A stretch of 64,000 bases of DNA, from assembly GCA_030272585.1 (NCBI GenBank), contig BSYQ01000009.1, forward strand, positions 868,001-932,000, read 5' to 3'. Each line of letters opens with the position of its first letter. Within the stretch, counting starts at the first letter, position 1. Source of the stretch: Bryopsis sp. KO-2023. Its lineage: Eukaryota > Chlorophyta > Ulvophyceae > Bryopsidales > Bryopsidaceae. Of the stretch, positions 48,544-55,587 are shown piece by piece. The position numbers and the translations under genes are program-made. The notes beneath the pieces were generated by a model. That model saw only the letters and a program-made list of their open reading frames with translations, searched no databases and had not been told where the DNA came from.

Positions 48544-50397
48544 CTACTTACAGCTCCTTTTGATCCAAGGGATGAAGGCTTTCACTCTGGTGAAAATAGA
48601 GATGGCATCGACATCAGTGCAATCTCCGGTAGTGTAGGATGCTATGCCAACCAACTCATCCTTAAATTCATAGATGGTCGGTCGATGGAGGACAGGGCCA
48701 CCATCATCACCTGGAAAAGACCCCACATATTCAAACTGAAAAACAAGCCCACATATAAAAAAAGGCCACATATTAAAAAAGGGCACTCAACCGAAAATGA
48801 TCAAAAAGTGCATTTATTTATTTATTTATTTTCCTTGGAGGGGGGGGGGGGGGGCACTTGTTTCGTGTAAAACCATATACGTTCCAAAAAGGCCTTTCCT
48901 TTAATTCTGTTTTGCATCTTCCTTTTCGTTTCACTAGGGAAAATTTCCCAAAGGAAAAAAAAAAAAAAAAAAAACTTCTGTCTTTTTTTTCCTTGAACCA
49001 TTCACGTACCAGCGCACACCCCAGCAGAGTTGGGCCCCTTGATGCACACCGATCTGAAGGTCAAGTCTTCTTTCAGGTCGAAGGCTTTGGCACATCTTTT
49101 GTTGGTGACATATTTGAATTTGCCCGCTTGCAGCAAAAAGGAGAAAGAGCCTCCGATGCTGGAGCGGCCGAAACCCAAAAACTCCAGTTCTTGAGAGGGC
49201 TTCAGTTTCGTTCCCAAAATCGGCATGGGCAACAAGCACGAGGGTTTGTCCAATTTGAGGATGGCAATATCGGAGCCGTCAATCACATCCCCGGTCCAGG
49301 ATTCAGGCACGATGGTGTCAACAGTCTTGCGTTTCTGCTCGGGGAGAAAACCATTCACAGATTAGCTTAAAATAAAGCTGGGGGGGGAAAGGGGGAAATC
49401 ATGCAAAAGTTTACCCTAAAATATTTTTTTCCCCCGAATTTTGGTCCACAACATGGTGTTCTTCGAAAAATTCGGAACGTCGTGGAGAAGTTTAGGTTTA
49501 TCGTGTGGGGTGGAGCAGAGGATTAGTAAGGCAGTCTGGATTTTGCTTCAAAATTATTCATTATTAACTTACCTCGATGGGATTGTCCCTGTCCCAGCCG
49601 CCAAGGAAAACGGTGGGACGCGGATTGCTGTTGGTAGAAACCCTCACATCCACACAATGAGCCGCCGTCAGCACAGCATCCTTCTTTATTAAAACGCCTC
49701 CACAGAGGTGGTCTCCGTTGCGATCGCGAACGGACACCATGAACGGGTAAGGTCCGGCCCTTTTGCAGGTTCCTTTTGGAATTTTGAAATCGTCCGGAAG
49801 AACCTGCCCAGAGAATTGAAGGAGATCTCGGCTGGCCCCTGGAAATCGAATTCAGGTTAAGTTTGTGAGGGGATTAACCAACAAATAAATAAATAATAAA
49901 TATGGATATATATATACACACACAAGAGAATGGGCGATCTTGGAGAAGAACCCCTGACCCCAATTCCCCCAATTCGAAAAATTAAATTGAAAATTGAAGT
50001 TAATTTGGGAATTAAAGGAAGGTAAGAGTGTTGCGATCAAGACTGGGGGAACCTCTCCAAGTTTTCTCACACTTTTTCCCACACGTTTTCTTCTGCATTC
50101 CTCAACTCGGGAAAACAGAAGAGTGATACAGTGTGACGAAGTTCTCGACGCCCTTTCCCTAAAGAATTTTCTTTTCGTGGAGAAGAAGAAGACGCGAGCA
50201 TCCCGAATCCACTCAGGAGTTTTCCACCACAAGAGTTTTATATACGAAGGGAGGCGAGATGGAGGAAGGTCGAAGAAGATACAAAAGTGCTGCTCACCCT
50301 GCGATTCAAGGACGACGGGTTCCTCCGCTGCCACTACGGAGAGCAGCACCGCCAGGCCCCAAAACGCCAATAATCCATGGAAAACTCGACACCCCAT
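48544..50397 (-). CDS. secreted trypsin-fold protein, catalytic Ser replaced by Asp (gene A)
   Basis: Chymotrypsin-family (S1) fold, predicted inactive. Exons 50397-50298, 49838-49573, 49334-49010 and 48710-48544 join in phases 1, 0, 1 and give 285 residues. ATG 50397 opens a clear signal peptide (LLAFWGLAVLLSVVAA). The fold shows PYPFMVSV, HLCGGVLI, LTAAHCV with the catalytic His, and DIAILKL with the catalytic Asp. The serine motif is GDDGGP instead of GDSGGP (codon GAT at the Ser195 position). There is no IVGG activation site before the domain. The residue equivalent to 189 is Gly. All structural cysteines around the motif remain, so it is probably a folded, secreted or vacuolar, non-catalytic protein. 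It shares intron positions and phases with gene B and is a tandem paralogue. Confidence 0.9.
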
Positions 50398-53300
50398 CGT
50401 GCCGCAAAACGGTTTGTGTATATAGACGTCTCTCGGTCGCCTTTCTTCTTTAAAAAGGGATCGCAAGGTAGCGGAGCTCGGTTGGGCTGTTGGCGAGACT
50501 TCCCTCGTTTCGCTTTTTTCCCAGGAAGGAATACGAAGACGAGCACTACGGGTTGTCGCTGTCAAAAATCGACGGCCAGCGTTTTTTTTTCGTTCTTTGT
50601 TCGAGAATCTTTTCTCAGCAGCGGTGTTGTATTCATCACCAGAGATTTGCGGTTCGGGGCTTTTTGAGAGGTGCTGCTGTGCTACGTAAATTCCAGTTCC
50701 ACACCACGTGATGGATATTTCACATGGAAGATTCTAAACCGTTTCTCTGGCGGGATTCGAAGTGGGGGCAGAACCCCTTCCTTTTCGAGGAGCCCAACAG
50801 CCCGCGGAACTCTCGAATTCGAAAGGCTGAATATCAATTTTGCCACGAGGTGTAACATTGGTCAGAAGTCGCGGCCAAAGCATTTTCCAACGCGTGGCAA
50901 ATCGAAGGGAGCTGACTTCTGCCATTGAAAACGGGGGCTGGGGCTGCTCTGTTGACGGCGCCGACTCTTTATGTTTTCTTCTGTTTCTTTTCTTTTTTTT
51001 CTCTTGTCCCGTGGTGTTCAGTTAAATTGGAACGGGCTCCTGTGGCCCGTTTCCCCGGTAACTCTATTACAGATGTGTGTATAAGGCTGTGCTTTCTCCT
51101 CGCAGACAAAAAAACAGAAAACTCAACCGAAGTCCTTTTCCCCAGTCTTATCCAAGCAATCCATCCCAGAACAAAGAAAACAAAAAAAAAACACCAACAG
51201 AGCTTTCAATATTAGAAAATTGCTTACATCGATCACCAGATCAAAAATGCATGCAAGGAATCATTACCCTTGCATGCAATCGATCTGCCCTCTTCAATGT
51301 CGAGAAGAACAGAGCAACCTGCCCATGTGTTTCTTCTGTGATTTACTCCCCCCCCCCCCTATTCTCTAATGAACGGTTTCGTTCTGGCCCCCTTTCTTTT
51401 TCCTCCACCCCACCCCCATTTTCACTCCCCTCCTCCCAAAAACAGCAAAAAAAAAACAACAGATTGCAAGAAAAATCTCTCCTCTTTGCATCCGATTCTC
51501 TGAAGCGTTCTTTTTCTTTCTCGAGAAAGGAAGAAAAAAAAACAAAAACATTCACCCCACGCCAAACCGCAAGAATCACTGGGTTGCCATCACAAGGTCC
51601 TTTTTTCTTTTGTCGAATCCCCCAACCCCAAAAACAAAACAAAAAAAAGAAGCAACCCCACATTCTCGAGGAAAAAGAATTACCATATGATCGGAGCTAA
51701 ACCTTGCTTAAAAGAAAGAAAGAAAGGGTCAAAATCACCAATTTTTGCCCCCCCCCCCCGCCCCTGATTGAATCTATTGTGGATCTTTCCCCCATGTAAA
51801 AACATCAAAAAGGAAAATAAGAAAGAAAACCATCCTTTTTATGTTCCCAAAAAAGAAAAAAAAATCCGACCCGTGCAAATGACCTGTTCTCTTTTGTAAA
51901 ACGAGGTCATTGTAAATAAGCGGTGCTTGTATTTACATAACTGATTGCCTCCCCCATGCAGAAAAAGAAACGCGCATGATTGAAACTCACCGCACGCTGT
52001 TTTCTTCTTTCCTTTGTTTTTTTCTTACTTTCCCTCGTTCACCCCCCCGCTATTTTTTTTCTTCGATTTTGAAAAGCAACTTTTTTTTCTTTCATTATTT
52101 TCCAATCAATGAATCGAGGGGGTACGCGTCTTGCGAATTCAAACCTGGCTGATGCAGGCGAAACTGGTCCATCATAGAAACAAAGCCTTATCCAAAAAGA
52201 AAAGAAACCAAACCAAGATATAAAACTTAAAACCGAGCAACATACACAGTTTTCCCTGAATCGTTCTGCTCTTTGTTTTTTGGACACCTTGCCCTCAAAA
52301 CCCCTTTTCCACTCACCGACCTCTTGTATAAATTTTCAGGGGGGGGTCCTCCAAAGATGGCTTTTTTGCTAAACAATCCAACATATCGATGTTCCCTCCT
52401 TGTCTTAAAAGAAACGCTTGCTCCGCCCCTCCCTCAAACTTTTTTCCCAACTACTCCCCCCGCCAAAAAAAATCACATCGCAATGCACTTTTGAAACTAT
52501 TGAGTTTTTGTCAGCCAATCGTCAAGAAAAAAAAACCCTGAAAATTGAAGCAATTGCTTGTCGTATGTGCATCAAAATAACGATCACTATCAAAGGAAAA
52601 CCACAAAAAAAAAGAAAAAAAAAGGGGAAAAAAATACCACAATCATAATAGTGTATGATGATAATAATACCGCCCCACTTCTTTAGTAGAGAATATGTTG
52701 ATTTCCTTGATATGAATGTGAGTATTTCTGTTTTTTTTCCTTTTTTTTCTTTTTTTTATTTCCTCCCCTAAATCCCCCTAAACCCACCCACCCTTTCTCC
52801 TCCGATGTACACATTTTCATTAGCAAATTTTTTTTTTCTATTTTCACAGAAACGACCAAAAAGAGCGCCACAAAAAGCATTCCCTCCATGCACCCCATGG
52901 AGAAAACCTCCCACACACACAAACACACATATATATATATATTTTATACATAAAAATATATATACATATATTAGTCATTTGCCCCCTTGACCAACCATTA
53001 ACATAACACGACATGACAAGATTTTCACAAGAAAATCAGTACAAACTCCCAAGACCATGAACTTTTAGTCATCTTTTTTGTTTCTTTTTGCCCCTCCCCA
53101 CCCATTGCACCACATCGCCATCCAAATCCATTATCGTCTTGATATATCAGCCAAACATTATTGGCCACCAGCGGTACTAATAATAGTGTTTGTACATAAT
53201 TTTTCTTCTTTTCCATTTTCTTTTTTTTTTCTTTTTTTTTTTCCTCTCTATGTATTTCAGCTACTTGTCAACTAATCGCTCTTTTTTTGTCTTCTTCAAT

Positions 53301-53697
53301 TTCGTCTTTCTTTTCTTTTTACTTTTTTTTTTCATTCCATGGATCGCTGTACCATTGGCTTCGAAAAATATCGCTGTGAGGATTTGGACAACTCCTTATT
53401 GCAACCACTCCTGCTTACACTGAAAAACAAAATACAAACAGCCCCAAAAAAAAATCAAAATATGCATTGAAGTAAAAAAAAACAGAAAAAAACAATAATA
53501 ATAATAATTCAGATGCACAAATATATATATAGTACAGCAGCCGTCAGACATATCTACACATACACAACAGCTTTCAATGCACTTCACTGTGCTTTTTTCG
53601 TGAGCTTCAGAATTGCTTCATTGACTAGTGCCTAATGCCAAATTATTTTATTTCGAAATACGAAATATAATTCCAGCTCAAAAACTAATATATATAT
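50398..53697. other. intergenic between the two trypsin-fold genes
   Basis: 50398-51060 is upstream of gene A, GC-richer, with no supported exon. 51060-53697 is low-complexity, C/T/A-rich and G-poor on the plus strand, with C runs at 51349-51360 and 51750-51761. It has AT-rich microsatellites near 52927-52975 and 53520-53532. This is the 3' flank of gene B. No gene is supported. Confidence 0.55.
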
Positions 53698-55587
53698 CTA
53701 AACCAAGCACTCACTGTTGTTCTCGATCCAGGTCTTGTAGTACGTGACATCAGTGAAAACCGCGTAAGTGTTTTTATCAGAGCATTGTCCTGTGCCAGAT
53801 GTATAGGAAGCAATTCCAGAAATCATATCACTGAACTCAGTCACTGATGGCCTCAAAATGCTCGGCCCGCCCTCATCGCCTGCAAAATCCGAACCAAACA
53901 AAAATCAGGGGTCCTTTTCAGAAAACAACAGTCCATCATTCCAGCTCAGCACCCTGCTTAACTTTCCCAAAATGAATTGAGAAGAAAATACTATGAAAAG
54001 AAGCTCCTCCTTTCCCTTTTCTCATTTTTTTAAAAGTGTATACCCCACCTTCGCACACCCCTCCAGTTCCAGAAGGACCTTTTGCGCAGTACGTCTCGCC
54101 AGCATTGCCGGAAATCGGGTAAGCCTGGTTATCTCTGCAGGTCTGTTCGCCAAAAGCAGTGAACTTTCCAGCCAAAAGCTTGTTCGGAAAGGGGCCATTT
54201 GTGCTGGTGCGACCAAAGCCGAGGAAAATGGAGGGCATGCTGAAAAGCTGGTGCGTTCCGATGGCAGGGATCGTTTTCACACAGGTTGGGGCGTTCATTT
54301 TCAAAATCGCGAGGTCGTTGCCGAATTGACGAAGCCCAGTCCACCCAGGGTGCATTGTGACGCCCACAGTCCACCGTTTCTGAAATTTGAAAAGACAAGA
54401 AAAAAAAAATTCACCCCTGTCCTGCAGACTGAAGCCCTATCTTGGAGAATAAAGTCGAACAAAGTATTTTGTTATTTGGTTTATTTATTTATTTATTTTG
54501 GGGGAGGCCTAACTACAGTCCAGGACAGAACAAAAGGAAAAACAGAAAAAAAAACTCCATCTTGCTGTAACTTGTCCTGAGCAATTAATTCTGAAGTAAG
54601 TGGCTACAATTGCTTTGCAAAGACAAAGAAACGAAAAAAGGCCCATGCGCATTTTTTGGTGTTTTTCATTTAATTTATTTCGTTTTTTCCATCCTCAACA
54701 CTCAGTCAGCACACAGGATTAAAAAAAAATCAGATCCCCCCTTCCCCTTTCTTTTCGAAGATATTATTGATGAACCCACCTCAATGGGGTTGTCCAGATC
54801 AAAACCGCCTATGCTCAGTTGGGGATAGGGGTTGCTTCTTGGGGAGGACCGCTGGTCCACACAGTGAGCTGCAGTCAAGACAGAAGTTTTGGAAATCAAA
54901 ACTCCGCCGCACAGGTGCTCCCCTGCCTGCGTCTTCAACGAAACCATGTAAGGAAATGGACCTTGAAAATCACATGTCAAGGCCACGAAAGGTACGAACT
55001 GTTTCAAGCTCCGGCTGCTGCTTCCTGAAACTGCAACACAAACACAAACGCACCCCTGTTAGAACAACTTTTGCTTCTGATGGAGAAGATTCATGTGAGG
55101 GGTTTTTTTGGGGGGGGGGTTGCAAAAGATATGGATTGGGGAAGGTCCACCCATCGAGTCAAAATTAGTGTGTGTGTGCATTAGTGTTGTGCAGAGGTGA
55201 CATCCCAGCCAACTGAAGAAAGCATGCAGCCAGCCACGTGCAAAATCCGTAGGAGTTTCTGACCAATAGCGAGAAGAAAAACTGAAAATCAATTCTGTGG
55301 TGGCGAGCGTGTTGCTGGATGGAGTGTCTGACATGCGTGGATCAGAAGCCTGGCCGTTCGACGCCGTTTCGACTGATGAGCGCAACACTTCCACGGGATT
55401 CACACCGACGCAGAGAGCCCGCCTTCGGAAAAAAAAACCAACGCCAAAAACCAACCTCCCCAGAGAAGACTCTAAACGCGAAAGTCACCGCCACGAAAAA
55501 ACACAACCCCCTCTTGTTTGGAACCCCACACTCACCAGCCACCACTCCCAGGAAGATCAGCCCAAGCAGACAGAGGGATCTCGTCAT
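53698..55587 (-). CDS. secreted trypsin-fold protein, catalytic Ser replaced by Glu (gene B)
   Basis: Second S1-fold copy. Exons 55587-55536, 55030-54780, 54379-54049 and 53879-53698 join in phases 1, 0, 1 and give 271 residues. ATG 55587 begins a signal peptide (MTRSLCLLGLIFLGVVAG). The fold has PFPYMVSL, HLCGGVLI, LTAAHCV and NDLAILKM, so His and Asp of the triad are kept. The serine motif is GDEGGP (codon GAG). IVGG is absent and residue 189 is Gly. The C-terminus has the usual FTDVTYYKTWI helix. Gene order, exon number, phases and motifs match gene A. Both copies replacing Ser by an acidic residue argues against a sequencing error and for a maintained non-catalytic role, perhaps binding or inhibition; the role is inference. 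Confidence 0.9.

What the first reader, a model, noticed from the sequence alone, without database searches (positions are those of the whole stretch)
48544..55587. Tandem trypsin-fold paralogues with the catalytic serine replaced by Asp and by Glu
Seen: both genes keep His (LTAAHC) and Asp (D-I/L-AIL), the cysteines, a signal peptide and identical intron phases, but read GDDGGP and GDEGGP where active S1 proteases read GDSGGP, and both lack the IVGG activation site. Known: non-catalytic S1 homologues usually carry Gly, Ala or similar at Ser195. Inference: an acidic residue in two copies suggests a selected, possibly ligand- or metal-binding role beside the kept His/Asp, or a signalling or inhibitory secreted protein. 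Plants and green algae rarely carry chymotrypsin-type secreted proteins, which adds interest.
Basis: partly seen in the sequence, partly recalled or inferred. Interest (0 to 1): 0.75.

Follow-up and report, generated by a model that had tools for sequence, protein, structure and literature searches.

The report
Green-algal trypsin-like proteins lacking catalytic serine
Two neighbouring genes of a green seaweed make probably secreted trypsin-shaped proteins whose cutting serine is replaced by an acidic amino acid, and they belong to a set of about twenty such genes under constraint, so they probably work by binding a partner rather than by cutting protein.

Summary
Gene A (48544-50397, minus) reads GDDGGP; gene B (53698-55587, minus) reads GDEGGP. 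Spliced, both match Pfam Trypsin, keep His57 and Asp102, share intron phases 1-0-1 and lack the IVGG start.

The pair is not isolated. The 91 Mb genome (green-type rbcL; probably Bryopsis, by inference) has 93 GDSGGP sites and 21 confirmed trypsin-fold genes with Asp (20) or Glu (1, gene B) at position 195. Seventeen form one clade with three Asn195 genes; 15 of the 17 lie on contig C14. A has a 72%-identical Asp195 paralogue on C7, with synonymous sites saturated. His57 is kept in 20 of 20 readable D/E genes, Asp102 in 20 of 21. A GG start at the splice site is seen in 19 of 27 Ser195 genes read and 0 of 20 D/E/N genes.

Most likely these are secreted S1A pseudoproteases that act by binding, with Asp102, His57 and Asp/Glu195 joined by salt bridges. 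Partner, structure and expression are untested. Position 195 is not frozen (Asp and Asn interchange), and one origin is not excluded. Asp195 with His57 and Asp102 also occurs in six bacterial homologues. New variant of a known kind.

The parts
50298..50397 (-). Gene A exon 1 (start codon, hydrophobic leader MGCRVFHGLLAFWGLAVLLSVVAA); ends in phase 1
   Evidence: GT donor, open spliced frame
49573..49838 (-). Gene A exon 2; His57 codon 49659-49657; no IVGG; phase 0 end
49010..49334 (-). Gene A exon 3; Asp102 codon 49271-49269; ends within the Gly193 codon (phase 1)
48544..48710 (-). Gene A exon 4 with GDDGGP; Asp195 codon 48705-48703; stop
55536..55587 (-). Gene B exon 1 (leader MTRSLCLLGLIFLGVVA); phase 1 end
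54780..55030 (-). Gene B exon 2; His57 codon 54866-54864; phase 0 end
54049..54379 (-). Gene B exon 3; Asp102 codon 54316-54314; phase 1 end
53698..53879 (-). Gene B exon 4 with GDEGGP; Glu195 codon 53874-53872; stop

Best explanation
Genes A and B encode secreted, non-proteolytic chymotrypsin-fold (S1A) proteins: pseudoproteases that act by binding. They belong to a genome-wide set of 21 genes with Asp or Glu at position 195. Proposed working: the protein folds and is secreted without zymogen activation, because the Ile16 start that would pair with Asp194 is gone. The Asp/Glu195 carboxylate pairs with protonated His57, which is itself held by Asp102. This salt-bridge network fills the former nucleophile site, stabilises the cleft and removes acyl-transfer chemistry. 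The cleft and surface loops then bind a protein ligand; the likeliest candidates are the alga's many active S1A proteases, their inhibitors, or proteins of microbes on the seaweed. Shown: fold family, residues, absence of the activation start in A and B, expansion, purifying selection on A/C7 and the C14 clade. Inferred: secretion, the salt bridge, inactivity, binding. Not known: the partner.
For: Trypsin family and residue states. 21 D/E195 genes, 3 N195 and at least 4 G195, against 93 GDSGGP sites with a TCN serine codon, none of these 93 on C14. His57 in 20 of 20 readable D/E195 genes and Asp102 in 20 of 21. The activation start ([GN]G at a phase-0 acceptor ahead of the PY..SL strand) is found in 19 of 27 Ser195 genes and 0 of 20 D/E/N genes (19 D/E, 1 N) read. 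Purifying selection: median NG86 dN/dS 0.357 over 119 of 136 pairs (0.05<dS<1.5) of 17 C14-clade rows, against 0.256 over 54 of 136 pairs of 17 C4-type rows (15 Ser, 2 Gly); A versus C7 pN 0.205, pS 0.80. The substrate strand is remodelled in the C14 clade: Ser214 to Gly 17 of 17 rows, 215 to Ser/Ala 17 of 17. Precedent for binding functions: S1 pseudoproteases as ligands, cofactors, decoys and scaffolds, and PRSS23 as an intact triad without the Ile16-Asp194 switch (PMC13194640, passages of the discussion).
Against: No structure, expression or biochemistry. The acidic residue is not required throughout: Asn195 appears in three genes of the C14 clade and Gly195 in the sister pair. Position 195 is not among the slowest columns. 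L010 keeps an in-frame RIIGG upstream; it had no gene model and so is outside the 20, and loss of the activation start may not be complete there. 8 of 27 Ser195 genes also fail the activation-start test as coded, and 1 of 4 Gly195 genes passes it. That the 53 gene models have no stops is weak evidence, because exons were picked as open stretches and 16 of 68 loci given gave no model.
Confidence: 0.72

Rival explanations
1. An active hydrolase of another kind: Asp195 acts as a carboxylate nucleophile in an Asp-His-Asp triad, as in alpha/beta-hydrolase haloalkane dehalogenases and epoxide hydrolases (recalled), and His57 activates water on the ester intermediate. These would be trypsin-fold, non-proteolytic enzymes.
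For: His57 and Asp102 are kept with Asp195 across the family. The same His-Asp-Asp set recurs in 6 of 7 readable Asp195 bacterial homologues, whereas 0 of 10 readable Glu195 ones keep His57 (Fisher p 0.0006 ignoring relatedness). Such chemistry might not need the oxyanion hole or zymogen activation (inference).
Against: Asn195 in three genes of the same clade and Glu195 in B. The substrate strand is altered in the C14 clade. L014 has Asn102. I know of no S1A enzyme that works so (recalled, not searched). The bacterial cases could be young substitutions in otherwise intact active sites.
Confidence: 0.05
2. A metal-binding cleft: Asp/Glu195, His57 and Asp102 bind a divalent ion.
For: The residues are acidic plus His and are kept together.
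Against: Asp102 is normally buried behind His57 and could hardly reach the same ion (general knowledge of the fold). Asn195 and Gly195 relatives exist. No search for further ligand residues was made.
Confidence: 0.05
3. Relaxed, decaying duplicates without a function of their own; Asp/Glu195 is a hitch-hiking state.
For: Ratios in the C14 clade are somewhat higher than in the C4-type set (0.357 against 0.256), and residue 195 switches between Asp and Asn there.
Against: A and C7 both keep Asp195, His57, Asp102 and nine cysteines while synonymous sites are saturated.
Confidence: 0.08
4. Residual proteolysis by other means: Asp195 or a bound water, with His57 and Asp102, cuts peptides slowly.
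For: Two of three triad residues are intact.
Against: No activation start by the coded test in 20 of 20 D/E/N genes read, and an acidic residue in the nucleophile site should disfavour the attack and the oxyanion (inference).
Confidence: 0.04

Closest known systems
Arthropod serine protease homologues (SPH), e.g. Tenebrio molitor and Drosophila spheroide
   Same: S1A domain, mostly secreted, with a lost catalytic residue; large families beside active paralogues
   Different: Tenebrio SPHs: His57 kept in only 42 of 125; Ser195 mostly to Gly (26), Thr (21), Asn (11), and Asp and Glu each only 1-4 (PMC11172050 section 2.6, read). Here Asp dominates and His57 is kept in every readable D/E gene. 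Spheroide has Gly at the serine (PMC5718610, passages).
Oomycete glucanase inhibitor proteins (GIPs)
   Same: Catalytically inactive trypsin-like apoplastic proteins in a family with active paralogues (PMC3091767, passages)
   Different: Distant lineage; no glucanase target tested here; residue 195 of GIPs not compared
Scabies mite inactivated protease paralogues (SMIPPs)
   Same: Inactive S1 paralogues keeping the fold with an altered cleft (PMC13194640, passages)
   Different: Parasite proteins; their residue 195 was not checked
Human protein Z
   Same: S1A domain without protease activity that works as a cofactor; recalled to carry Asp at 195
   Different: His57 is also lost in protein Z (His and Ser not conserved: PMC5008636, passage); it is a Gla-EGF multidomain protein
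PRSS23
   Same: Lacks the Ile16-Asp194 activation switch yet keeps His and Asp; acts without proteolysis (PMC13194640, passages)
   Different: Keeps Ser195
Bacterial S1A homologues with Asp195 (Allokutzneria L200, Actinacidiphila L159, Actinophytocola L124, Methylococcus MAG L178, L191, L208)
   Same: His57, Asp102 and Asp195 together
   Different: An IVGG-like start was found by a loose pattern in 5 of these 6 (L178 only as LVNG; none in L208); whether they lie in arrays was not examined

Membership tests
S1A chymotrypsin-fold superfamily (Pfam PF00089) | Near full-length match to the Trypsin profile above cut-off | tested here: met
   A 115.7 bits (profile 3-220), B 116.8 bits (10-220), cut-off 20.6
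Active S1A serine peptidase | His57, Asp102 and Ser195 all present | tested here: not met
   A has Asp195, B has Glu195
Active S1A serine peptidase | Activation cleavage giving Ile/Val16 to pair with Asp194 | tested here: not met
   No IVGG in A or B; by the splice-site test 0 of 20 D/E/N195 genes read, against 19 of 27 Ser195 genes
S1 pseudoprotease / serine protease homologue | S1A domain with at least one catalytic residue replaced, under constraint | tested here: met
   constraint shown for A/C7 and the C14 clade, less firmly for B
S1 pseudoprotease / serine protease homologue | No protease activity in vitro | not testable with these tools
   Needs recombinant protein
Oomycete GIP | Binds and inhibits an endo-beta-1,3-glucanase | not testable with these tools
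   No binding data
Haloalkane dehalogenase / epoxide hydrolase (considered for chemistry only) | Alpha/beta-hydrolase fold | tested here: not met
   Pfam gives Trypsin (A also Trypsin_2) and nothing else at E up to 0.001, so membership is excluded; analogy of chemistry is untested
Metal-binding S1A variant | Metal bound at 57/102/195 | not testable with these tools
   No structure or metal assay

The most novel reading that the evidence does not exclude
The Asp195 proteins are enzymes: a trypsin fold turned into an Asp-His-Asp hydrolase with a carboxylate nucleophile acting on a non-peptide substrate (for example halogenated or ester metabolites of a marine alga). The state would be reached repeatedly, since His57-Asp102-Asp195 is found together in the algal family and in bacteria.
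Probability: 0.05. Interest if true: 0.92.

Novelty: new variant of a known kind. Interest (0 to 1): 0.5.

Why it matters
Pseudoproteases of the trypsin fold are studied in animals and known from oomycetes. Here one green-algal genome holds many active and inactive paralogues side by side, with a single dominant replacement (Asp) beside a retained His57 and Asp102. That makes it a natural experiment on how S1A enzymes become binding proteins. It also poses a sharp, testable question: does Asp195-His57-Asp102 only lock the cleft, or does it do chemistry?

Tried and rejected
Decay of a recent duplicate was considered and rejected for A and C7. Multiple independent origins of Asp195: the tree with column 195 masked places D/E in three spots, but AU tests on the tree do not reject a single clade (p 0.187 for the D/E/N rows plus the two C5 Gly rows, 0.37 without L014), so I make no claim of convergence inside the alga. 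'Acidic residue strictly conserved' was rejected by the three Asn195 genes and the site rates. The direction of the Asp/Asn changes is clear only for L105, which sits among Asp genes; for L080 and L106 an Asn ancestor costs no more changes. Thr/Ala and Val/Leu/Ile/Met/Phe at 195: 6 and 19 pattern places against 3 and 16 in the reversed control, so little or no excess; these places were not read one by one. A fourth Asn place, C10:3878741, was not read. The lists were cut at 100 places, so Gly195 on the later contigs and AGY-coded Ser195 were not counted. L072 (GDYGGP) gave no trypsin match. In one search, 68 loci were given and 53 models came from 52 of them; 16 loci gave none, L010 among them. 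Six models had no clean exon-3 donor, and several exon-3 ends were trimmed early, which affects residues 189-192 of several C14 rows but not 57, 102 or 193-198. The no-stop count is not an independent test, because exons were chosen as open stretches. Codon-model omegas from IQ-TREE were sought but none was printed, so NG86 pairs were used. A scan for exon 1 of five Ser genes gave no clear result. Metal binding and residual proteolysis were kept only as rivals.
Full report
OBSERVATION. The two genes lie on the minus strand of the window. Gene A runs 50397 to 48544 and gene B 55587 to 53698, each modelled with four exons, GT-AG introns and phases 1, 0, 1; there is no transcript evidence. The spliced proteins (285 and 271 aa) match Pfam Trypsin over almost the whole profile. 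The best of their solved relatives are ordinary S1A proteases such as matriptase, elastase and trypsin (60 rows shown each). A reads CAGDDGGP and B reads CEGDEGGP. His57, Asp102, Asp194 and the disulfide cysteines 42-58, 168-182 and 191-220 are in place, and there is no IVGG-like start. A, B and the C7 paralogue share three further cysteines (N-terminal, position 122, C-terminal). With the three standard pairs this gives nine outside the leader, an odd number, so one may be free or bridge two molecules (pairing inferred).

ORGANISM. The window lies in a 91.09 Mb assembly of 28 contigs. Contig C28 (91,672 bp) holds a green-type rbcL (judged from recalled sequences) next to an atpA-like frame, and the window holds an RGP gene. 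Together with 79 matches to the F5_F8_type_C_2 lectin-like family, the size and contig number fit Bryopsis sp. KO-2023. Its assembly GCA_030272585.1 is named in PMC12509668 (passages); the 90.7 Mb, the 27 contigs and the lectin expansion are recalled, because the genome paper is not held. The identification is an inference.

THE FAMILY. The genome has 198 trypsin-profile exon matches (a lower bound) and 93 GDSGGP sites with a TCN serine codon, with none for the reversed pattern. GD[D/E]GGP has 23 places against 7 for the reversed pattern. Reading the exons around them with a profile built from ten proteins of this family shows 21 real trypsin-fold genes: fifteen on C14 (1.07-1.39 Mb), one each on C4, C6, C7 and C8, and A and B. 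Twenty have Asp and only B has Glu. None of the 93 GDSGGP sites is on C14. Three further members of the C14 clade read GDNGGP. Four genes, two on C4 and two on C5, read GDGGGP; more Gly195 genes may exist, because that list was cut.

TREE. On a tree of 64 paralogues with column 195 masked, the C14 clade (17 Asp, 3 Asn; 100/96 support) is sister to the two C5 Gly195 genes. A, B and the C7 gene form a second clade (100/100), nearest by weak support to Ser195 genes. The C8 gene stands alone on a long branch. Asn needs at least three separate changes within the C14 clade; only that to L105 is clearly Asp to Asn, and the state at the base of the clade is open. The three Asp/Glu spots cannot be claimed as independent origins: AU tests on the tree do not reject one clade (p 0.187 and 0.37).

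CONSTRAINT. Among 17 C14-clade rows the median dN/dS is 0.357 over 119 of 136 pairs (0.05<dS<1.5), against 0.256 over 54 of 136 pairs in a C4-type set of 17 rows (15 Ser195, 2 Gly195). A and the C7 gene have pN 0.205 and pS 0.80 (saturated), so Asp195, His57 and Asp102 were kept over a long time. B versus C7 has dN 0.50 and dS 2.9, too saturated to weigh much. None of 53 gene models has a stop, but exons were chosen as open stretches, so this is weak. Residue 195 itself is not among the most conserved sites: 94 of 216 columns are slower within the C14 clade and 68 of 216 over 21 D-type rows. His57, Asp194 and most of the disulfide cysteines are slower than most columns. His57 is present in 20 of 20 readable D/E195 genes (exon 2 of L028 is outside its locus). 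Asp102 is present in 20 of 21; the C8 gene has Asn.

WHAT ELSE CHANGED. Ser195 genes usually begin exon 2 with GG or NG at a phase-0 acceptor, which fits an I-V|G-G activation start split by the intron (exon 1 of these genes was not identified). This holds in 19 of 27 Ser genes read, in 0 of 20 D/E/N195 genes (19 D/E, 1 N) and in 1 of 4 Gly195 genes; two gene models lacked exon 2. One C14-type gene without a model, L010, still shows RIIGG in the open frame upstream. In the C14 clade the substrate strand is rebuilt: Ser214 to Gly in 17 of 17 rows, residue 215 to Ser or Ala in 17 of 17, and an aromatic near 228 to His in 17 of 17. A, B and C7 keep Ser214 and Tyr215.

COMPARISON OUTSIDE. One scan of the 84,980-species bacterial and archaeal collection with a C-x-GD[DE]GGP pattern (with a further base constraint after Pro) gave 114 stretches. 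Twenty-one are S1A by profile (E below 0.001), and 17 of these are readable at 57, 102 and 195. Asp195 comes with His57 and Asp102 in 6 of 7; Glu195 comes with His57 in 0 of 10, where it is replaced by Ser (4), Gly (3), Ala (2) or Tyr (1). Fisher p is 0.0006, but some rows are relatives (two Nannocystis, three Streptomyces), so it overstates the case. Gene B, with Glu195 and His57, goes against this pattern. So Asp195 is not private to the alga and tends to go with an intact His57. In Tenebrio, His57 is kept in 42 of 125 SPHs, and Asp and Glu at 195 are each found in only 1-4 (PMC11172050 section 2.6, read). Against at most 8 of 101 there, the alga has 21 of 28 verified non-Ser genes; these are related copies and not independent events, and Gly195 may be undercounted. 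A full-text search for GDDGGP or GDEGGP found one paper (PMC4055909), seen only as a listing and not opened. Searches for Bryopsis with trypsin and for S1A in green algae showed, in the listings, no paper on this family (best 15, 15 and 10 rows seen).

INTERPRETATION. The best-supported reading is a family of secreted S1A pseudoproteases without zymogen activation. An Asp102-His57-Asp195 salt bridge would fill the catalytic site, and the protein would work by binding. Absence of Ser195 and of the activation start in A and B, purifying selection and expansion are shown. Secretion, the salt bridge, inactivity and partners are inferred. The most novel reading left open is Asp195 as a nucleophile in a non-peptidase hydrolase. 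The retained His57 and Asp102 and the bacterial recurrence leave room for it; the Asn195 and Glu195 members and the altered cleft argue against it.

VERDICT. The interpretation that the acidic residue is a selected state is partly supported. The finding is a new variant of a known kind (S1 pseudoprotease), of moderate interest.

Noticed in passing
G000 C9:2322703-2326371 (L004), C9:2146516-2149338, C9:2240265-2243254, C3:4115485-4117083, C4:85920-90232: Trypsin-domain exons (single-exon on C9 and probably C4, in two pieces on C3) are followed within about 0.4-3 kb on the same strand by F5_F8_type_C_2 lectin-like exons: possible protease-lectin fusion genes.
   Followed up: no
L114, L158, L166, L139 and L180, L186, L214 (bacterial loci): Bacterial S1A homologues with Glu195 have His57 replaced by Ser (4) or Gly (3), a recurrent double change.
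   Followed up: partly
L001-L008 (intronless Ser195 trypsins): These eight have Asp189 in 8 of 8, but residue 193 is Asn in 5 of 8, an unusual oxyanion-hole residue.
   Followed up: no
G000 C14:1303954 (L029) and C14:1328521 (L030): Two Asp195 genes about 25 kb apart have identical proteins over the modelled exons, a recent duplication.
   Followed up: no
L032, L040, L053, L056 and many places: GGTGATGGAGGAGGTCC recurs many times; in the loci read it lies in an open frame (GDGGGPPGGGPPDRDPSG...) that looks like a dispersed mobile-element gene, not trypsin.
   Followed up: no
window 51000-53700: The 3 kb between A and B is rich in homopolymer and short tandem runs (poly-T, poly-C, TA repeats), as read.
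   Followed up: no
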